From contig NZ_VKDC01000048.1 in assembly GCF_007097395.1 (NCBI RefSeq), positions 1-36,168 of the forward strand: a DNA stretch of 36,168 nt. The letters are read 5' to 3'. The notes below the pieces were generated by a model, which saw only the letters and a list, made by a program, of their open reading frames with translations, searched no databases and was not told the origin of the DNA. Shown here in pieces: positions 3,228 through 34,898 of the stretch (position 1 is the first letter of the stretch; each line of letters starts with the position of its first letter). Source of the DNA: Fulvivirga sp. M361. Its GTDB lineage: Bacteria > Bacteroidota > Bacteroidia > Cytophagales > Cyclobacteriaceae. The position numbers were made by a program, and so were the translations under genes.

Positions 3228-5155
3228 ATGCTAAAAGGCAATGTATACAACGTAACGGATTTTGAAAAGAGATTCGAACGTATTGAGGCAGTAATATTTG
3301 AAAGCTCATCCACCGCATCTAAGGCAGTAGCCCAGGAGATAGCCAAACTGATCCAGTCTAAAGAAAAGCTCGGTGAGAAGTGCATTTTAGGTTTAGCGAC
3401 CGGGTCAACTCCGAAAGCGCTATATGCCGAGCTGGTACGATTGCATAAAGAAGAAGGCCTGAGCTTTACAAACGTGATCACCTTTAACCTGGATGAGTAC
3501 TACCCCATGGAACCCGATTCAGTGAATAGTTATGTGCGGTTTATGAAAGAACTGCTATTCGATCACGTAGATATTTTACCCGAAAACTGTCATATACCTG
3601 ATGGCACCTTACCTAAAGACGAGATCTTCAAGTATTGTAATGGCTATGAAAAGAAAATAGAGGATTTGGGCGGAATAGACCTGCAAATATTAGGGATTGG
3701 GGGAAACGGACATATTGGCTTTAATGAATCAGGATCGCTACAAAATTCAAAGACAAGACTAGTAGCACTAGACCACATTACCCGGGTAGCGGCAAGTAAT
3801 GATTTTTCAGGACTGGCAAACACTCCTAGAACTGCCATTACATTGGGTGTGAAAAAGATAATGGAAGCAACACGGGTTGTTTTAATGGCTTGGGGGGAAG
3901 GTAAGTCTAATATTATTAGAGAAGCGGTAGAGGGCGATATTACTAATCAGGTACCGGCATCATTCTTACAGGAACATGAAAATGCCGTTTTCATAATTGA
4001 TAAGGCTGCATCTTCCAAGCTCACCCGTATTAATTCTCCTTGGCTTGTAGAAAAAATAGCATGGACAGATCAATTGGTTAGGAAAGCAGTTCTTGGACTG
4101 GCTCTTAGTCTAAACAAACCCGTGCTTATGCTTACAGATGCAGATTATATAGAAAATGGTATGAGTGACCTGCTAGCAGACTCCGGACCGGCGTATGACA
4201 TCAACATTTATATATTTAACAAACTACAACACACTATCACCGGATGGCCCGGTGGAAAACCAAAGGCTGATGATACACATAGACCTGAAAGGGCTACACC
4301 GGAAAAGAAACGTGTGCTTATCTTTAGTCCCCATCCCGATGATGACATTATTAGTATGGGTGGAACTTTCAGGCGCCTTCATAATCAGGGCCATGAAGTA
4401 CATGTGGCCTATCAAACTTCCGGGAATATTGCAGTAGCAGATGACGAGGCCTTGCGTTTCGCAAGTTTCGTCGTGATTACAACGATAAGTTCAAAATTAG
4501 AAGTGTTGAAGCCAGGGGAATTTATGATGCCTCCGTAAAGTTCCTTAAGAGTAAAAAAAATAGTGAAATAGATATACCGGAAGTCAGGCATATCAAAGGC
4601 CTGATCAGGCAGGGTGAGGCAAAGGCTACAAGCCATTTTATTGGATTGCCTGATGAACAGATCCATTTTTTAGAACTACCTTTTTACGAAACAGGGACCA
4701 CCGAAAAGAAACCCGTAAGTGATGAAGATGTCAAGATAACGATGGATATCATCAATACCATAAAACCACATCAGATATATGCTGCTGGTGATTTAGCCGA
4801 CCCACATGGAACCCACCGGGTGTGTCTTAATATCATTTTTGATTCCATAAGGCAGTTGAAACATGAGGACTTTATGAAGGATTGCTGGGTGTGGCTCTAC
4901 CGGGGGGCATGGCAGGAATGGAACGTTGATGAAATTGAAATGGCGGTGCCTATGAGCCCCGATCAGGTGTTGGAAAAACGGCATGGTATTTTTAAGCACC
5001 AGTCACAAAAAGACGGTGTGGTATTTCAAGGCACAGATAGCAGAGAATTTTGGCAAAGAGCTGAGGATAGAAATAGAGAAACTGCAGACTTTTATGATAA
5101 ACTCGGACTCGCCCGTTATGCTGCTATGGAGGCCTTTGTAAGGTGGAAGTTTTGA
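3228..5155 (+). pseudogene. nagB: Glucosamine-6-phosphate deaminase (NagB) fused to a PIG-L/LmbE deacetylase domain, frameshifted
   Basis: Residues 20-330 are a NagB-type sugar-phosphate isomerase/deaminase: GLATGSTP (55-62), FNLDEYYP (86-93) and GIGGNGHIGFNE (156-167), with the catalytic Asp89, His162 and Glu167; position 160 is Asn where E. coli NagB has Asp. Residues 362-415 begin a PIG-L/LmbE metal-dependent deacetylase domain with FSPHPDDD (367-373). The frame is then lost near 4470: restoring one base before CGTGATTACAACGAT resumes the domain (RDYNDKFKIRS) and continues to the second metal motif DPHGTHR and the stop at 5155. The repaired protein would be about 642 residues, the usual length of this two-domain Bacteroidota fusion. 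As it stands, translation ends at 4538 without the second metal site. The deaminase half is complete and might still fold. It lies 27 bases after the symporter in what was one operon. Confidence 0.88.
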
Positions 5156-28398: not shown

Positions 28399-30870
28399 CT
28401 ACCATTTAAACTGTAAGGTAGTGTAGAATGACCTGGGGTCTGAAGGGATAATACCAGGACCGGGGTAGCCTGTGGCACGTCTGGTGAAGTACTTTTCATC
28501 CATAAGGTTATTGATTCCCGCTTCTACTCTGAATTTTCCGATTTTATAAGAGGCTGAGAGATCTAGGATGCTGTAGGCAGGAATACTGCCAATGATGCCT
28601 TCACGACTATCTCCTTCTTCCGGCCGCGGTGTGTTTTGCGCGTCGGTATATTGTTCTGAGAGATAAGTGTATTGCAGGCTGCCCATGAAATTTTTATAAC
28701 CAAAACTTACACCTGTTTTAAGGTTTACGGAAGGGATAAACTCTACCTGGCGCCCCTTGACATTATTGTCTTCACTATTCAGATATTCTGATCGGGTCAG
28801 GGCGATATTAATGAATGGATTTAGTCGAAATTGATCTTCATTGAGGCTTAGGAAATTCACTGCATTCCAATCCAGGAACATTTCAAAACCATAAATGATG
28901 GCATCGCCTATATTTTTTCTGACTCTGTCTCCCTTATTTTCACCTTCCTGAACCAGTATCGTACCAATTCTGTCATTATAAAACAATGAAAAGCCGCCAA
29001 TATCGTAAGACAGGTTTTTTTGCCATTTACCGCGTATGCCGAAATCACCTGTAGCACCATTTTCGTCCTCAATTTCCGGATCGACAATAAAGGTAGGGTT
29101 GACTACCCGGATGTCGCTAAAGGTTACGGACCGGTAGTTTTGAGAGAGATTTGCATAAAACTCTAACCCCTGCGATTGCCGATAACTGGTGCCAAGTCCC
29201 AACAGGATGAAGGATCGATTGAAATCACGATTATCCGTAGTGTCCTGTCGTAATATCTCGTTACCGGCACGATCAAACCCTACTTCTGTATACTGACCTT
29301 CCGAAGCTGTTTTGATATGTTCAAACCGGAAACCGGGAGTTATGGACAGCTTATCATTCAGAAAGAAGATGTTTTCTCCGAACACGGCAATATTAGTGTT
29401 CGGGAAATCGAAACCGGACTGATGCGGGTAGGAGGGAAACTCACTGTTGCGAAAAGAAAAATCATCATCAAAAGCATTGCTACCGGGCCCTTGCCGTGAG
29501 GCATTGTTAGCACGGTAATATTTAGAACCTATCAGAAAAACGGCTTTTTTTCCGGATAATTCATAGCGTGTGAGCAAACGCGCTTCAGCCCCCCAATTAT
29601 TAAATTCATCTTTTATCAGATCTCTTGTGAAAGCTTCTGAGTCATCTATTTCTGTAATAGGATTCCTTTCGGGGCGTTGTGGGTCGCCCCTGAAGCCCAG
29701 TGCATTTCTTTCGGCATCAAGGCCAAATACATTTAAGCTGAAGTCTGTACGGGTTGAGAATTTGTGTTTCAGTTTCAATGCCACAAGTCTCCAATCTACC
29801 TCGAACCAGTTTCTTTCCCTGTTACTTTGGTTAATGTTTTGCTCAAATTGGGTGTCCGTAAGTCCACCTGCCTGCTGGGCGAGATAGTGCAGGTAAGTAG
29901 TTTCCAGCGTCAGCGAAGTATTAGTATTCAGTGCATAATTAAATGAACCGAAATAATTGTAAGAATCAAAAGCCGAATTAGGCCGGAAACCGTCCCCCCG
30001 TTTGTAATTAAAATAGGTGTAGTAGCTGAACTTACCCGTTGTGCCTGACATACTATTGAAGCTGGTAAAGAGCCCAAAAGACCCCACAGACTGGCGTGAC
30101 AACAGCTCTATTTTTTTAGTAGCATGTGGCTTTTTGAATTTAAAATTGATCAATCCGCCAAACTGTGAGCCATATTGAAGTGAGGCAGCGCCGCGTATGA
30201 CCTGTATTTCACTCAAAGCCTCTGCAGGCGGAGTATAATAACTTTCGGGGTAGCCCAGTACATCTGCACTAATATCATAGCCACTTTGACGGGTATTAAA
30301 GTTAGCTGTTCGGTTGGGGTCTAATCCACGCCCCCCGATATTCAATTGCAGACCGGCATCGTTATTTTCGTAAATGTTCAGCCCAACCACCTGCGAATAG
30401 ATCTGGCGCGCATTATTAGCCGCAAAGTTTCCTACGGCATTGTCCAGCAAGACTACTTCTGATTTTTTACCCGCATAAATAGCAGTGCCCTCTACAGGGT
30501 TGAGTCTGCTCAAGCCGAATAGCTCTTCTTTTTGACGTCGGATGACCACCTCCGAAAGCTCATTGCTGAAAGGGGTCAGTGCTATTTTTAGCGTTTGGTC
30601 CTGAAAGATGGAGACTTGTTGTTTTAACGGATTGTATCCTATGGCAAAGACAGTGAGAAAATAGTCCCCCTTTTCTAATTGTGTAAAACGGAATTCACCT
30701 TTTGAGTTGGTCCGTTTAAGCTCTTTGGTAGTGTTGTTGAATACTTCTGCATTGCCGATAGGCTGATCTGTGTTAGCGTCCAGCACCAGACCTGATAGTT
30801 CAAATTGGGCCAAAAGCGGAGCATAGGTAAATGCAAAAAACAACAGCAGACTACAGACCTTTAATTTCAT
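28399..30870 (-). CDS. TonB-dependent outer-membrane receptor, FecA-like
   Basis: An 823-residue outer-membrane transporter without an STN domain. A signal peptide (MKLKVCSLLLFFAFTYAPLLAQ) is followed by a carboxypeptidase-regulatory-like domain (about 24-98, LSGLVLDANTDQPIGNAEVF), a plug with LNIGGRGLDPNRTANFNTRQ and EIQVIRGAASLQYGSQFGG (about 120-250), and a barrel ending in YTTLQFKW, a proper C-terminal aromatic. The plug and barrel resemble iron-citrate and iron-siderophore receptors (COG4772, FecA) more than SusC. It is the last gene of the DUF4856-imelysin-HTTM-receptor set; its first 20 bases overlap the end of the HTTM gene, so the two are translationally coupled. Iron or another metal chelate is the probable cargo, inferred from subfamily and the imelysin neighbour. 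Confidence 0.9.
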   Translation of the reverse strand: MKLKVCSLLLFFAFTYAPLLAQFELSGLVLDANTDQPIGNAEVFNNTTKELKRTNSKGEFRFTQLEKGDYFLTVFAIGYNPLKQQVSIFQDQTLKIALTPFSNELSEVVIRRQKEELFGLSRLNPVEGTAIYAGKKSEVVLLDNAVGNFAANNARQIYSQVVGLNIYENNDAGLQLNIGGRGLDPNRTANFNTRQSGYDISADVLGYPESYYTPPAEALSEIQVIRGAASLQYGSQFGGLINFKFKKPHATKKIELLSRQSVGSFGLFTSFNSMSGTTGKFSYYTYFNYKRGDGFRPNSAFDSYNYFGSFNYALNTNTSLTLETTYLHYLAQQAGGLTDTQFEQNINQSNRERNWFEVDWRLVALKLKHKFSTRTDFSLNVFGLDAERNALGFRGDPQRPERNPITEIDDSEAFTRDLIKDEFNNWGAEARLLTRYELSGKKAVFLIGSKYYRANNASRQGPGSNAFDDDFSFRNSEFPSYPHQSGFDFPNTNIAVFGENIFFLNDKLSITPGFRFEHIKTASEGQYTEVGFDRAGNEILRQDTTDNRDFNRSFILLGLGTSYRQSQGLEFYANLSQNYRSVTFSDIRVVNPTFIVDPEIEDENGATGDFGIRGKWQKNLSYDIGGFSLFYNDRIGTILVQEGENKGDRVRKNIGDAIIYGFEMFLDWNAVNFLSLNEDQFRLNPFINIALTRSEYLNSEDNNVKGRQVEFIPSVNLKTGVSFGYKNFMGSLQYTYLSEQYTDAQNTPRPEEGDSREGIIGSIPAYSILDLSASYKIGKFRVEAGINNLMDEKYFTRRATGYPGPGIIPSDPRSFYTTLQFKW

Positions 30871-32215
30871 CGTTGAATGGTAATATCCAGTTTTTGTGTT
30901 GAAAAGAATCGTGTAATGCCGCCAGGTTTACTTTGGGGTCAATAAAGGGCTGGTTCCTGCGGCCGTTGAGGGCTACGTAACTATCAGTATATACCTGCAC
31001 CTGCTGGTATCCCTGCTTTTCGCAATGTTCTTTCAAGAAATGGGCGTACTGTATCACGAAGTCCGGCTGGGTGGCCATTTGTTTTTCCTGCAAAGGTGTA
31101 AGAAAATCAGTATTATCTATATAAAACTGATGCTCAGTTACACCATCTACAATTTTAAAGTGCGCGTAACCCACTTTTTCCATCAGCATGACGCGCCAGG
31201 AAAACCGGTAGCCTTCTTCAGTCCAGAACAACTCCCCGGGATATGCCAGATGCCTGAAGGGAAAAATCAGTTGTAGCATAAAGAAAACGACCAATACCGT
31301 TAATTTCGGGCGACCGGCAGTTATCAGTTTTGTGGTCATTTTTCGTCCATTGTCAAATACCTGTTTCCGGGTGCGGCATAATTTTGCCAAACCTGCCAGA
31401 AAACGCTCGTGCAGGTCCGGGTTGAAAAAGATGGTGGTGCTTACAATCATGATGTACGGGAACATGCCAATGGGGAAAAGAGCGCCGGTAAGTACATGAA
31501 AGGTAACAACCAAAGCAAAGGCCATCCATCGGGTTTTGTTCCATAGGAGCAGAAAGGGGATACAGAGGTCATAGACTGCGCCACTCCAGCTGAACAGGTA
31601 GATGACCCAGGTTTTTTGCAAAAGCGCTCCCAGTAAAGGCAGGTCGTAGCTGGAAGGTAGCCATAGTTTTAAAGGCATGGCTTCTATGAGCCAATCCGAG
31701 TTTAATTTTGCCAGTCCTGCATAGAAATAAACTATGCCAAGGAGGAGTTTTATGGCATCTACAGACCAGGAGGGAATGTATTGGAAGGCTATTCCCGGGT
31801 TGCGCTTAGCATCTAATGAAAAGTAAGCATTGGCAGGCAGGAAGATCATTAAAAAGCTCAGGAGGCTGATGAAATAGTAGTGATTGAGATAAGTGGTTTT
31901 ATCCATTAACTCAATGTAGGTAAAGCTCAGGAAGAAGGTTATGATGGCCAGTCGATAGCGATATCCCAGGCATACCGCCAATGCTGACAGTCCGCATAAG
32001 ATGAATAACAGGTAGGTATATTCTCCCAGCGGTTTGACGAATTCAAACCCATAGTAGGAAAAGAAGAACTTTGGTTCGATGTAGAATTTTTCGATCCACC
32101 CATAGCTCCAGAAACGAACGATGCTCAAAAACATCATGGCTCCAAAAAAAATACGAAAGGCCGCAAGTGGTGCAGCCTTCGTGGTATTATGGAGATATGT
32201 GTTAATCCATGGCAT
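30851..32215 (-). CDS. HTTM-domain integral membrane protein related to vitamin K-dependent gamma-carboxylase
   Basis: A 454-residue inner-membrane protein. Residues 15-290 carry several hydrophobic segments typical of the HTTM domain (RIFFGAMMFLSIVRFWSYGW, YTYLLFILCGLSALAVCLGY, YLNHYYFISLLSFLMIFLPA, IKLLLGIVYFYAGLAKLNSDW). One more is near 310 (LTVLVVFFMLQLIFPF), followed by a soluble C-terminal part (about 330-454). YFYAGLAKLNSDW resembles the mammalian carboxylase segment YFIAGVKKLDADW, so Lys170 falls where the catalytic base Lys218 lies (alignment from memory). Bacterial homologues exist without a blood-clotting context and mostly have unknown substrates. The start overlaps the imelysin stop (TGATG), and its end overlaps the receptor gene. 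It may modify or help handle the lipoproteins encoded upstream; that is inference. Confidence 0.85.
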   Translation of the reverse strand: MPWINTYLHNTTKAAPLAAFRIFFGAMMFLSIVRFWSYGWIEKFYIEPKFFFSYYGFEFVKPLGEYTYLLFILCGLSALAVCLGYRYRLAIITFFLSFTYIELMDKTTYLNHYYFISLLSFLMIFLPANAYFSLDAKRNPGIAFQYIPSWSVDAIKLLLGIVYFYAGLAKLNSDWLIEAMPLKLWLPSSYDLPLLGALLQKTWVIYLFSWSGAVYDLCIPFLLLWNKTRWMAFALVVTFHVLTGALFPIGMFPYIMIVSTTIFFNPDLHERFLAGLAKLCRTRKQVFDNGRKMTTKLITAGRPKLTVLVVFFMLQLIFPFRHLAYPGELFWTEEGYRFSWRVMLMEKVGYAHFKIVDGVTEHQFYIDNTDFLTPLQEKQMATQPDFVIQYAHFLKEHCEKQGYQQVQVYTDSYVALNGRRNQPFIDPKVNLAALHDSFQHKNWILPFNDEIKGL

Positions 32216-33336
32216 CAGTCACCGTCAGCGTCTACAAAGTCTACGCGTATATTGAGGGCTGTGAACATGTCTACTTTCATTAAAGGAACAACAGCCTGTA
32301 ATTCATTGTAAGCGCCGAGCATGGCCGTATTGTTGGTTTCTACCTCGTCAAAAAAGCTGTCTTTCAGCAACCCGCTGGTGCTTTGTGCTTTAGTGAACTG
32401 GCTGTTAATAGCAGTAGCCAGGTTTTCTCCTTCAGTGATCGTATTCAGGAAGGCCAGATACGTATTTAAGCCGGGTCCGGTACCGGCACCGTCAAAATGC
32501 TTGCCATTGAAAAAATCTATCGTAGCCTGTAAAGCTGCTTCAAACAATACTTTAGAGTACTTTTTTGAATAGAGACCTTCCACCCGGTCGCTTAGAGGAG
32601 AAGTGGAAAATACCCCGGCCGGGATGCCTATTTTACCTGCGCGAAGTGCTTTTTCATAGTAAAACATATAGTCATTGACCAACTTGTTTACCGAACTGCC
32701 TGCGGTGGATCCGTTGTTCTCTACAAACTCATCTCTAAACTCATCTTTCCAGTCGTCAAGTACTTCATTGGTCAAACTATTCAGGCGTGTAACCACCTGG
32801 CTTAAGTAAATACCGTACTTTGCATCTTGTCTAAATTGGTCTACAATATCCTCATCATTATCGGCAATCCCAAAAAGCAGATAATCCAATGCCGGAAAGC
32901 CTTGCTCATCCCGTGACGACGGTAGTTCTAGGTTAAAAGGAGGAACCCCGGAAGAAATACTGGACTCAATTTCCGCTGCATTTGCCGGGAAAATATTCGT
33001 AAAATCTCTTAAGGTCAATTCCTCTGCTTTTCCTATCTCAAACATGGAAACATGCTGCCAGGCGATGTAAGCTTCCAGCCAGGCAGTTCGAAGCTCTTCC
33101 AGGTTTTGGACCGATAAGTTGATTGTAAATTGATTTTCTGCGGTGGTCAGCTTTGCCAATGATGCTGCATATGCTTCGTAGGCTGGAATGATAATGTTAT
33201 CCGCCCAGTTGATCAATAATGCCGATCGATCAAAACCATCTGATCCGGACCCGGGAGAATCGTCGCTACTGCACGCCCAGGCACCCATTACCAGTGTCAA
33301 ACCAAATACTATCCGTCTTATCATTACGTTCTTCAA
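32215..33336 (-). CDS. Imelysin-like (insulin-cleaving-peptidase/IrpA family) surface lipoprotein
   Basis: A 373-residue lipoprotein: signal peptide and lipobox at MGAWAC (Cys22), then SSDD, an acidic cluster right after the cysteine that in Bacteroidota favours export to the cell surface. The rest is largely helical: WADNIIIPAYEAYAASLAKL, LRTAWLEAYIAWQHVSMFEIG and the signature region GFPALDYLLFGIAD (146-159). Family members typically have GxHxxE here; this one reads GFPALD, so the His is Pro and the Glu is Asp. KVLFEAALQATIDFFNGKHF and LDDW-type helices follow. Imelysin proteins are associated with iron uptake in other bacteria, acting with outer-membrane receptors. The gene lies 19 bases after the DUF4856 gene and shares a base with the HTTM start. 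Confidence 0.88.
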   Translation of the reverse strand: MKNVMIRRIVFGLTLVMGAWACSSDDSPGSGSDGFDRSALLINWADNIIIPAYEAYAASLAKLTTAENQFTINLSVQNLEELRTAWLEAYIAWQHVSMFEIGKAEELTLRDFTNIFPANAAEIESSISSGVPPFNLELPSSRDEQGFPALDYLLFGIADNDEDIVDQFRQDAKYGIYLSQVVTRLNSLTNEVLDDWKDEFRDEFVENNGSTAGSSVNKLVNDYMFYYEKALRAGKIGIPAGVFSTSPLSDRVEGLYSKKYSKVLFEAALQATIDFFNGKHFDGAGTGPGLNTYLAFLNTITEGENLATAINSQFTKAQSTSGLLKDSFFDEVETNNTAMLGAYNELQAVVPLMKVDMFTALNIRVDFVDADGD

Positions 33337-33355
33337 TATTTTGTTAATGGTCTAC

Positions 33356-34585
33356 TTATGATTCTCCTGCTTGTTCTACTGTGAAATTAAACTTAGCGGC
33401 AATGGCCTCAGACAAAGCATCTAGTGTAGCATCGGTAACATCCCATAAACCATTTTGCCCATCTCCTAAAAGATCTTCTAAAAAGCCGTCTACCTCAGCT
33501 TTTGTAAAGTATGGGGCATCGCTTCCCGGACGTCTTGTAAAGCGTAAGCTATAAATAAATCCGTACCCTTCGGACAGATCATGAAAAGTCGTTCCATATG
33601 CGGCTGTATTGTTTCGGTCATCCGGTAAAGCCATTTTTCCCTGTTGCAGATAATAAACGGCGCGTATTGCAATAACTTCGGAAAGTTTTTCTTTAATAAT
33701 ATCAGCCTGCTGGTCCCTTAACGTGTAGTCTTTGGCAACGATGGCTGCGCGTCCTAATTTGAAAGCGTTAAATATATCATCGGCTATTCCTGTGAAATCG
33801 GCATCGTTTTCTACGCGACCAACATATTTATTCAGAAAGCTGTCATCCTCACCAATAGTGGCATTAGGATTAGCTGTACTTGCAGAAGTACCGTACAGGT
33901 ATCCGTAAGCCTCATCCCACTTGTGCTCCATGGTGGTATAATTTTTACCATCTGCTACTATATCGGCGTCATTTTCAGAGCGGTTATCCGCTTCATCCAA
34001 GACGGCGGTCCCAAGGTAATTGTTGAGTGCCTGATCCAGCATCAGTGCACCGATCAACGATTTGTTGACCAATTGGTTATATTCTAACCCATTGGCATTA
34101 ACAAAACGTGTTGAACTGCCATCAGCAATTTGACCTGCTGTACCAGGCGCTGCTACGGTGAGCTCATTGGGGAAGACTTCACCTACCTGTTTTTCTATCC
34201 ATTGTTCAAAATCTTCTTTAATTTGACTGGCTTCTATGGTATTGGCAGAAAAGAAATCACGTGAAGCGGCCGTTTTGCTTCGAATACTCTTGTCAGAACC
34301 ATTCAGGTCCTCATTACCAAATGGATTAGCATCTCCACCGTCTGCGGTTTCATTTTTATACATCTCCAGTAATTCAAGTGTTGAGCTTTCAAAGTCTTTC
34401 ATAGCACTGATCAACTCTTCCCCCATTAAGATCCGGGTAGTCTGTCCACTGAAAGAAACAGAACTTTGACCGTCTCTTTCAAAGGTGAAGGTGTCAGGAG
34501 CGGTTACTGAGGGGCCATTGTCATCGTCAGAACAGGCTGAAAATAAGATGAGTGAAAGACAAATGAGAGCGTTTAACTTATACAT
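33356..34585 (-). CDS. DUF4856 lipoprotein, imelysin-related
   Basis: A 409-residue lipoprotein that opens the operon. MYKLNALICLSLILFSAC is a signal peptide with lipobox FSAC (Cys18), followed by SDDD, a strong Bacteroidota surface-export cluster. The body matches the DUF4856 pattern: NPFGNEDLNGSDKSIRSKTA, GLEYNQLVNKSLIGALMLDQ, YTTMEHKWDEAYGYLYG, and a C-terminal YGFIYSLRFTR. Much of it is helical, and EHKWDEAYGY recalls the EH motif region of imelysins, so it is probably a distant structural relative of its neighbour. The function of DUF4856 is not established. With the imelysin-like protein it could form an extracellular binding pair feeding the receptor. A promoter is recognisable 44-74 bases upstream. 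Confidence 0.87.
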   Translation of the reverse strand: MYKLNALICLSLILFSACSDDDNGPSVTAPDTFTFERDGQSSVSFSGQTTRILMGEELISAMKDFESSTLELLEMYKNETADGGDANPFGNEDLNGSDKSIRSKTAASRDFFSANTIEASQIKEDFEQWIEKQVGEVFPNELTVAAPGTAGQIADGSSTRFVNANGLEYNQLVNKSLIGALMLDQALNNYLGTAVLDEADNRSENDADIVADGKNYTTMEHKWDEAYGYLYGTSASTANPNATIGEDDSFLNKYVGRVENDADFTGIADDIFNAFKLGRAAIVAKDYTLRDQQADIIKEKLSEVIAIRAVYYLQQGKMALPDDRNNTAAYGTTFHDLSEGYGFIYSLRFTRRPGSDAPYFTKAEVDGFLEDLLGDGQNGLWDVTDATLDALSEAIAAKFNFTVEQAGES

Positions 34586-34628
34586 TGGAGTGTTTGATAT
34601 TATTTAGACTGATTAAAAATAGTTGATG

Positions 34629-34659
34629 CAAATATATAAGCGGCGCCTAAATGCTCAAA
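34629..34659 (-). promoter_or_regulatory. Bacteroidota housekeeping-type promoter of the DUF4856-imelysin-HTTM-receptor operon
   Basis: On the - strand, TTTG (34659-34656) is followed by exactly 19 bases and TATATTTG (34636-34629), a full match to the -33/-7 consensus TTTG-N19-21-TAnnTTTG. Transcription would begin near 34622, giving a leader of about 37 bases before the DUF4856 ATG at 34585. All conserved positions match. Confidence 0.75.
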
Positions 34660-34660
34660 G

Positions 34661-34685
34661 TTTATTTAGATTAATTTTAAATAAA
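34661..34685. repeat. 8-bp inverted repeat adjoining the promoter
   Basis: TTTATTTA (34661-34668) and TAAATAAA (34678-34685) are perfect complements around a 9-base AT-rich spacer. It begins one base beyond the -33 box, a suitable place for a regulator. AT-rich DNA yields such repeats by chance, so the regulatory meaning is open. Confidence 0.45.
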
Positions 34686-34898
34686 ATGATGAGAGCTATG
34701 CAAGACGGCCGAAAGCTTAGCGTACTTAACATCAACGATGATTTTAATCGAGAAGCCTTGGCTATTGAAATAGACTTAAGTCTTCCTTCAAATCTTGTGA
34801 TCAGAACGTTACAATACTTAGAGGAAGAACAGGGCTTACCTCAAATGATCCGGGTGGATAATGGTCTAGAGTTCTCCTCTCATAATTTTAGGTGGTAG
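34684..34898 (+). pseudogene. IS3-family transposase (orfB, integrase core) fragment
   Basis: The translated stretch MQDGRKLSVLNINDDFNREA, then LAIEIDLSLPSNLVIRTL and MIRVDNGLEFSS, is the middle of an IS3-type DDE integrase core; the Asp of NIDD (here INDD) and of RVDNG are the first two catalytic acids. The frame is open from 34623, but nothing before about 34684 looks like transposase. It ends at a TAG after NFRW; the same frame then reads CAAKGQRE, like the next transposase segment WCxxKG, before two more stops. The start and the end with the catalytic Glu are missing, so it is a dead scrap. It lies directly behind the promoter of the DUF4856 operon. Confidence 0.82.

What the first reader, a model, noticed from the sequence alone, without database searches (positions are those of the whole stretch)
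28399..34659. DUF4856 + imelysin + HTTM/gamma-carboxylase-like + FecA-like receptor: a compact, poorly described uptake system
Four genes are packed as one unit (gaps or overlaps of +19, -1 and -20 bases) behind one consensus promoter: two lipoproteins with surface-export signals, a multi-pass membrane protein of the vitamin K-dependent carboxylase/HTTM family, and a receptor of the FecA type. Imelysins are linked to iron in other bacteria. No classical siderophore or ABC genes are present. I infer extracellular capture of a metal or chelate by the lipoprotein pair, uptake by the receptor, and a modification or redox step at the inner membrane by the HTTM protein.
Basis: partly seen in the sequence, partly recalled or inferred. 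Interest (0 to 1): 0.75.

Follow-up and report, generated by a model that had tools for sequence, protein, structure and literature searches.

The report
Iron-uptake operon with vitamin-K carboxylase relative
Many bacteria of one large group carry the same four-gene unit, apparently switched on when iron is scarce, that joins an outer-membrane receptor and two probable surface proteins with a relative of the human vitamin K enzyme used in blood clotting, which gives that enzyme's bacterial relatives a testable job.

Summary
Window 28399-34585 (- strand) encodes DUF4856 lipoprotein, imelysin lipoprotein, HTTM/VKGC membrane protein and TonB-dependent receptor, tightly packed behind a Bacteroidota-type promoter. 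It is no local curiosity: 74 of 80 fetched DUF4856 loci hold all four genes in that order, and in 296 phylum genomes 47 of 52 DUF4856 hits lie beside both imelysin and VKGC. The promoter is flanked by two copies of a palindrome, TTATTTAGAnTnAnTCTAAATAA, found in 76 of 80 upstream regions; its core is the published Riemerella Fur box, and in this genome it also precedes feoB, other receptor operons, ferritin and suf. In Riemerella a matching gene row rises in low iron. Iron is well supported. The VKGC protein keeps GGCX's catalytic Lys218, His160 and Asn159 (74/74 copies) but not its human substrate-coupling residues. In two Roseivirga genomes VKGC pairs with a DUF4856 copy, away from imelysin and receptor. 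Best reading: a Fur-controlled iron capture system whose DUF4856 lipoprotein is modified, probably gamma-carboxylated, by menaquinol-driven VKGC. Iron acquisition ~0.93; carboxylation ~0.45, untested; main rival is menaquinol-driven redox or iron release.

The parts
34662..34684 (.). Fur-type operator 1 (TTATTTAGATTAATTTTAAATAA), just upstream of the -33 element
   Evidence: motif scan, 27.2 bits; palindrome in 76 of 80 upstream regions; core equals the published Riemerella Fur box
34629..34659 (-). Bacteroidota-type promoter TTTG-N19-TATATTTG
   Evidence: sequence; similar layout in the listed upstream regions; consensus recalled
34600..34622 (.). Fur-type operator 2 (TTATTTAGACTGATTAAAAATAG), between promoter and start codon
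   Evidence: motif scan, 21.2 bits; own-genome pattern search, one mismatch
33356..34585 (-). DUF4856 lipoprotein, probably surface-exposed, 409 aa, mostly helical model (pLDDT 89)
   Evidence: PF16148 486 bits; lipobox plus acidic signal; AlphaFold2 model
32215..33336 (-). imelysin-fold lipoprotein, 373 aa, motif GFPALD in place of GxHxxE
30851..32215 (-). vitamin K-dependent gamma-carboxylase relative (HTTM + lumenal domain), 454 aa, with GGCX N159/H160/K218 equivalents N111/H112/K170
   Evidence: PF05090, PF22777; E 3e-47 to human GGCX; residue map
28399..30870 (-). TonB-dependent receptor of siderophore-receptor type with CarboxypepD-like N-terminal domain, 823 aa
   Evidence: PF00593, PF07715, PF13715; TIGR01783 148.5 bits, below its cut-off of 223.5

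Best explanation
A Fur-repressed ferric iron acquisition operon. In low iron Fur leaves the two operators and the four genes are made together. The DUF4856 and imelysin lipoproteins go to the cell surface, catch an iron source and pass it to the TonB-dependent receptor. The VKGC protein sits in the inner membrane with its catalytic face to the periplasm and uses menaquinol, O2 and CO2 to modify a partner lipoprotein on its way out, most likely DUF4856, by turning one or a few glutamates into gamma-carboxyglutamate, which would strengthen iron binding. Shown by sequence: gene set, order, operators, co-occurrence, intact catalytic residues, DUF4856-VKGC pairing in two genomes. Shown by others: low-iron and Fur response of a matching gene row in Riemerella. 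Inferred: surface location, iron species, enzyme activity, substrate.
For: Four genes in order in 74 of 80 loci (a few with split or cut ORFs); 3 of the 6 exceptions are cut by contig ends. 296 phylum genomes: 47 of 52 DUF4856 hits have both imelysin and VKGC within 5 kb on the same strand; 60 of 81 VKGC hits have an imelysin. Palindrome in 76 of 80 upstream regions, two copies in 51; shuffles 7 of 1600. Outside the training set 7 of 8 diverged operons carry it, against 0 of 5 orphan VKGC genes and 1.3% of 520 random windows. Same box in this genome before FeoB, TonB receptor operons with PepSY, HmuY or DUF4374-type proteins, ferritin and SufB. Riemerella: TonB receptor, 'Vitamin K-dependent gamma-carboxylase', imelysin and an adjacent hypothetical gene up in low iron (printed ratios 2.11, 2.64, 3.07, 2.41) and in delta-fur with iron (1.90, 1.39, 1.93, 1.36); Fur box ATTTAGAATTATTCTAAAT. 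GGCX N159, H160, K218, W223, F286, H287, F294, F299 equivalents in 74 of 74 VKGCs compared (of 76 loci with one; split L017 and low-scoring L020 left out) and, for the catalytic trio, W223 and the Phe, 8 of 8 diverged ones. Natural split: one genome has Fur box-imelysin-receptor in one place and Fur box-DUF4856-VKGC in another; a second has Fur box-DUF4856-imelysin-receptor plus a DUF4856-VKGC pair.
Against: No VKOR gene in this genome to recycle a quinone epoxide, and a paper says menaquinone epoxides are not known in any prokaryote. GGCX residues tied to substrate binding, N158, K217 and R436, are L, A and mostly Q here (M in 5 of 8 diverged copies). Six VKGCs fetched from outside the operon (one, L175, of operon type) keep the same core residues, so their conservation does not prove an operon-specific carboxylation. 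No Gla-like Glu cluster stands out in the DUF4856 alignment to my eye. Distance matrices over 69 loci tie VKGC most closely to the receptor (partial r 0.63), not to DUF4856 (0.11). The DUF4856-VKGC pair of the second split genome (L012) has no operator at the thresholds used, and the two split genomes may be one event. The Riemerella paper lists no Fur box for this operon and gel-shifted four other promoters; its hypothetical gene is not verified as DUF4856. 5 of 52 DUF4856 hits (4 genes) lack VKGC and imelysin. Two imelysins tested in print did not specifically bind ferric ion or heme.
Confidence: 0.45

Rival explanations
1. Same iron operon, but the VKGC protein is a menaquinol-driven redox or iron-release protein in the inner membrane, filling the slot that PepSY reductase-like or DoxX proteins fill in other receptor operons. 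It does not carboxylate any protein.
For: Four other Fur-box receptor operons of this genome carry a PepSY_TM protein (L222, L226) or a DoxX-like one (L223; L224 just under the DoxX cut-off). A Flavobacterium psychrophilum iron-regulated receptor operon holds a DoxX protein. A PepSY-flavodoxin reductase-like gene sits just upstream of the one variant operon that lacks its VKGC (L007); weak, because similar genes also flank operons that keep theirs, such as L040. K218, which deprotonates the quinol in GGCX, would be kept for this too. No VKOR.
Against: The Glu-holding N159 and H160 are as invariant as K218, and the lumenal domain is kept. A redox protein has no evident need to stay with DUF4856 when the operon splits.
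Confidence: 0.27
2. The VKGC modifies the TonB receptor or the imelysin rather than DUF4856.
For: VKGC and receptor genes overlap by 20 bases in the window and their distance matrices correlate best, partial r 0.63. 60 of 81 VKGC hits lie beside an imelysin, 46 beside a recognised DUF4856 hit, though the other 14 may hold a diverged DUF4856-slot protein, as in the one opened.
Against: Two genomes keep VKGC with DUF4856 and away from imelysin and receptor.
Confidence: 0.15
3. The operon takes up another metal (zinc, copper, manganese); the palindrome belongs to a Zur- or Mur-like Fur relative or to another regulator family.
For: Six Fur-family genes in the genome, so the regulator is not pinned; DtxR-family genes were not searched.
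Against: Same box before feoB, ferritin and suf; the gel-shifted Riemerella Fur box has the same core, and the matching genes there respond to iron.
Confidence: 0.05

Closest known systems
XusABC xenosiderophore uptake of Bacteroides (TonB transporter, surface lipoprotein, third component)
   Same: Iron-starvation-induced TonB transporter plus surface lipoprotein (abstract of PMC13142918; that XusC is a PepSY protein and XusB a DUF4374 protein is recalled).
   Different: Lipoproteins are DUF4856 and imelysin, not DUF4374; the membrane protein is a VKGC, not PepSY. A Xus-like operon (L226) exists separately in this genome under the same box.
Human gamma-glutamyl carboxylase GGCX and bacterial HTTM/VKGC relatives
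   Same: HTTM and lumenal domains; K218, H160, N159 and most quinone-pocket residues.
   Different: 454 aa; alignment to GGCX ends at about residue 505 of 758; N158, K217, R436, M401 changed; no known propeptide or Gla domain partner.
Imelysin-containing iron operons (ICMP/IPPA with EfeB-like peroxidase; EfeUOB)
   Same: Imelysin-fold lipoprotein, Fur or iron control (passages of PMC3143127; fold).
   Different: No EfeB-like peroxidase or EfeU-like permease among the four genes; GxHxxE is G[FL][PGAQ]xx[DEN].
Iron capture system (ICS, SusC/SusD type, serotransferrin iron in Capnocytophaga)
   Same: A DUF4856 gene also sits in a SusC-SusD-Peptidase_Mx1-DUF4302 cluster (L186), similar in make-up to the ICS cluster described for Riemerella (passages of PMC5429918).
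   Different: No SusC/SusD or metallohydrolase in the window operon; no VKGC or imelysin near the L186 DUF4856.
Algal FEA1/ISIP2A iron-assimilation proteins, via NCBIfam 'FEA1-related lipoprotein' NF038033
   Same: Weak partial matches: 24 of the 26 hits in 296 genomes fall on DUF4856 genes, best 38.7 bits; the window's protein 19.7 bits.
   Different: All far below the 250-bit cut-off; in the genome search the window's own gene did not ring; FEA1 itself was not compared.

Membership tests
Vitamin K-dependent gamma-carboxylase (VKGC) family | HTTM transmembrane domain and VKGC lumenal domain | tested here: met
   PF05090 277 bits, PF22777 204 bits, both cut-offs 27.7; E 3e-47 to GGCX
Vitamin K-dependent gamma-carboxylase (VKGC) family | Catalytic base K218 and Glu-site N159, H160 | tested here: met
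   N111, H112, K170 in window; 74/74 compared and 8/8 diverged copies
Vitamin K-dependent gamma-carboxylase (VKGC) family | Human substrate-side residues N158, K217, R436 | tested here: not met
   L, A, Q in the window
Vitamin K-dependent gamma-carboxylase (VKGC) family | Glu to Gla carboxylation with vitamin K hydroquinone | not testable with these tools
   needs enzyme assay or mass spectrometry
Imelysin superfamily (M75) | Imelysin fold and Pfam match | tested here: met
Imelysin superfamily (M75) | GxHxxE motif | tested here: not met
   GFPALD; His at the third position in 0 of 74 relatives; a His-less variant (IPPA family) is described
FecA | FecA model score and N-terminal signalling domain | tested here: not met
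   89.9 bits vs cut-off 1100; N-terminus is CarboxypepD-like, no signalling domain at E 0.001
Fur regulon | Fur box at the promoter | tested here: met
   two palindromes flank the promoter; core as in PMC5609570
Fur regulon | Fur protein binds this promoter | not testable with these tools
   six Fur-family genes in the genome; no binding data for this promoter
FEA1-related lipoprotein (NF038033) | score over curated cut-off | tested here: not met
   19.7 bits vs 250; 0 of 296 genomes over cut-off
XusABC | DUF4374 lipoprotein and PepSY protein (recalled as XusB and XusC) | tested here: not met
   neither family among the four proteins at E 0.001
EfeUOB / EfeB-type imelysin operon | peroxidase (EfeB-like) or Ftr1-type permease beside the imelysin | tested here: not met
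   neither among the four proteins

The most novel reading that the evidence does not exclude
Bacteria make gamma-carboxyglutamate with menaquinol to build a ferric-iron site on a surface lipoprotein: DUF4856 would be, as far as I recall, the first bacterial vitamin K-dependent protein, with E168 and/or E339 as candidate Gla residues (kept in at least 79 of 80 close relatives, in 7 of 7 profile-recognised diverged copies linked to a VKGC and in the unrecognised L178 slot protein as aligned, but each in only 2 of 4 unlinked copies). If DUF4856 also shares ancestry with algal FEA1 proteins, one iron-capture domain would link these bacteria and algae.
Probability: 0.35. Interest if true: 0.93.

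Novelty: new variant of a known kind. Interest (0 to 1): 0.72.

Why it matters
Bacterial relatives of the vitamin K carboxylase have been known for years without a settled role (recalled; the one passage seen mentions a Leptospira gene). Here one is tied, in about a sixth of sampled genomes of the phylum (46 of 296), to an iron-starvation operon with three partners, two of them lipoproteins. That names likely substrates, an inducing condition and a single assay (+44 Da on Glu, lost on deletion). It also describes a common iron-type system that I found in the searched library only as lines of a table.

Tried and rejected

Mirror-tree test: distance correlations did not single out DUF4856 as VKGC's partner; VKGC-receptor was highest. 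Reported as evidence against.

First guess of a DtxR-type site: set aside once the Riemerella Fur box was found to match. DtxR-family genes were not searched.

Menaquinone-epoxide recycling by VKOR: no VKOR in the genome; the control rang in 3 of 14 genomes.

Literature: all ten searches used. No paper holds imelysin with DUF4856, imelysin with HTTM and TonB, FEA1 with imelysin, or DUF4856 at all. Of 11 papers opened, in part, only PMC5609570 showed the gene row. The library lacks most subscription papers and supplements were not read, so 'undescribed' means not found there.

One diverged operon (L190) and 4 of the 80 regions (L012, L018, L063, L069) lack a box at the thresholds used. The motif matrix was trained on those 80 regions; the diverged operons are the independent test. 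Of 21 distinct sites with at most one mismatch in the genome (29 rows; 10 rows for the reversed pattern) I opened 15.

Change made on rechecking: confidence of the best explanation is 0.45, not 0.5, because the whole statement cannot be surer than its carboxylation step.
Full report
WHAT IS THERE. Pfam names them DUF4856, Peptidase_M75 (imelysin), HTTM plus VKGC lumenal domain, and a TonB-dependent receptor with plug and CarboxypepD-like N-terminal domain. The receptor scores 148.5 bits with the siderophore-receptor model (cut-off 223.5) and 89.9 with the FecA model (cut-off 1100), so it is of siderophore-receptor type but not a FecA. Downstream on the same strand lie a TetR gene and phenylacetate-degradation genes (the latter named from sequence by recall), upstream a transposase-like remnant (by recall).

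HOW GENERAL IT IS. In 74 of these 80 all four genes follow in the same order on the same strand, a few with split or cut ORFs such as L017, L069 and L072. Of the other six, L015, L024 and L034 run off their contigs; L007 lacks VKGC, L012 and L014 have only DUF4856 and VKGC. In 296 genomes drawn from the phylum, DUF4856 has 52 hits in 50 genomes, the VKGC lumenal domain 81 hits in 69, imelysin hits in 71. Within 5 kb and on one strand, 47 of 52 DUF4856 hits have both others; of 81 VKGC hits 46 have both DUF4856 and imelysin, 14 imelysin only, 21 neither. In the one imelysin-only case I opened of those 14 (L178) a 379-aa protein without a Pfam match fills the DUF4856 slot. The five DUF4856 hits without VKGC are four genes: two alone (L183, L185), one beside a TonB receptor (L184), one in a SusC/SusD-Peptidase_Mx1-DUF4302 cluster (L186). 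All 7 other sampled genomes of the window's own family lack DUF4856, so the operon is patchy near home.

WHAT CONTROLS IT. Upstream regions of 79 loci and the window showed a palindrome TTATTTAGAnTnAnTCTAAATAA: 76 of 80 have it, 51 twice; composition shuffles reached the threshold 7 times in 1600. In the window the two copies, 34662-34684 and 34600-34622, flank the promoter. The matrix was trained on those sequences, so I tested others: 7 of 8 diverged operons have it (14.4 to 29.2 bits; L190 none), 0 of 5 orphan VKGC genes, and 1.3% of 520 random windows. A lone operon-type VKGC (L175) has a marginal 11.3-bit site; of the four DUF4856 genes without VKGC only L184 has a site. In the window's genome 21 distinct sites match with at most one mismatch (29 rows against 10 for the reversed pattern); I opened 15. 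They lie before TonB receptor operons with PepSY_TM, HmuY or DUF4374-type proteins (one DUF4374 match just under its cut-off), before feoB, a ferritin and sufB. Others lie by response-regulator-like or cupin-like genes with no evident iron link (names by recall). Riemerella anatipestifer Fur has a 19-bp box ATTTAGAATTATTCTAAAT, gel-shifted at four promoters (sections 17 and 18 of PMC5609570 read in full). The same paper's table of Fur-regulated genes lists four neighbouring loci: TonB receptor, vitamin K-dependent gamma-carboxylase, imelysin lipoprotein and a hypothetical protein, all raised in low iron. It lists no box for them, and I could not check that the hypothetical protein is DUF4856. 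The window's genome has six Fur-family genes.

THE VKGC PROTEIN. It aligns to human GGCX over residues 6-447 at E 3e-47. From passages of a cryo-EM paper (PMC12589487): K218 is the base that deprotonates the quinol; N159, H160 and Y395 hold the Glu; F286, F294, F299, H160, V210, M401 and W223 line the naphthoquinone site; K217 couples substrate binding, N158 and R436 hold the substrate backbone. Mapping, on 74 of the 76 loci with a VKGC (split L017 and low-scoring L020 were left out): N159, H160, K218, W223, V210, A214, G259, F286, H287, F294, F299, S398 and M402 are unchanged in 74 of 74; Y395 is Y in 63 and F in 11; M401 is V, N158 is L and K217 is A in all 74, R436 is Q in 73. Eight diverged operon copies agree at N159, H160, K218, W223 and the three Phe, and so do six copies from outside the operon, so the active site is a family trait. 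The enzyme is therefore probably active on a quinol, with substrate recognition of its own.

A NATURAL SPLIT. In the genome of L014 the single DUF4856 gene lies with VKGC behind one operator, and the single imelysin lies with the receptor behind another, over 100 kb away on the same contig. In the genome of L012 and L007 there is operator-DUF4856-imelysin-receptor plus a second DUF4856 with VKGC, the latter without an operator at the threshold. Both genomes are labelled Roseivirga, so this may be one event. It suggests two modules, imelysin-receptor and DUF4856-VKGC, and all four genes were kept.

READING. Iron acquisition under Fur is well supported (about 0.93). That VKGC carboxylates DUF4856 is the best single reading of what it does (about 0.45), with menaquinol-driven redox or iron release the main rival: other receptor operons of this genome carry PepSY or DoxX-like proteins, a fish Flavobacterium operon has DoxX (passages of PMC9331221), no VKOR is present, and menaquinone epoxides are said not to be known in prokaryotes (passages of PMC4555120).

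NOVELTY. The kind, a TonB receptor with surface lipoproteins for iron, is known (XusABC abstract; ICS passage). The gene set with a VKGC was found in the searched library only as table lines in one paper. Passages seen of Tenacibaculum, Bizionia, F. columnare and Riemerella CH-1 papers speak of imelysin or iron genes but not of this operon; Tenacibaculum has two imelysin genes three loci apart whose neighbours I did not check.

Noticed in passing
window 34623-34898 +: Transposase-like (integrase core, by recall) remnant right next to the operon promoter; the ORF even overlaps the promoter on the other strand.
   Followed up: no
window 3228-4538 and 4646-5155 +: A NagB-like deaminase fused to a deacetylase-like part seems split into two ORFs, a possible frameshift or sequencing error (names by recall).
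   Followed up: no
L176 8047-9384, L177 7789-9114: Orphan VKGC genes in two genomes sit in the same place, between a riboflavin-kinase-like and a seryl-tRNA-synthetase-like gene (names by recall), without a Fur-type box: a second, unexplained VKGC context.
   Followed up: partly
L186 611-9456 +: DUF4856 in a SusC-SusD-Peptidase_Mx1-DUF4302 cluster like the iron capture system, a second iron-type home for this family; no Fur-type box before it.
   Followed up: partly
L226 10069-12999 +: One long ORF joins a PepSY_TM domain to a CarboxypepD-like and TonB plug domain, a possible reductase-receptor fusion in an operon under the same box (the ORF runs off the stretch).
   Followed up: no
L088 (G226 C1:1487658-1490346): Tandem pair of DUF4856 genes in front of imelysin and VKGC.
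   Followed up: no
L023 16079-16579 and 14 other loci: A ferritin-like gene lies in the flanks of 15 of the 109 loci compared, 29 of which are only about 4 kb long (one copy checked with Pfam).
   Followed up: partly
L173 8736-10220, L174 7974-9326: The window's genome has two further HTTM/VKGC genes away from the operon with the same catalytic residues.
   Followed up: partly
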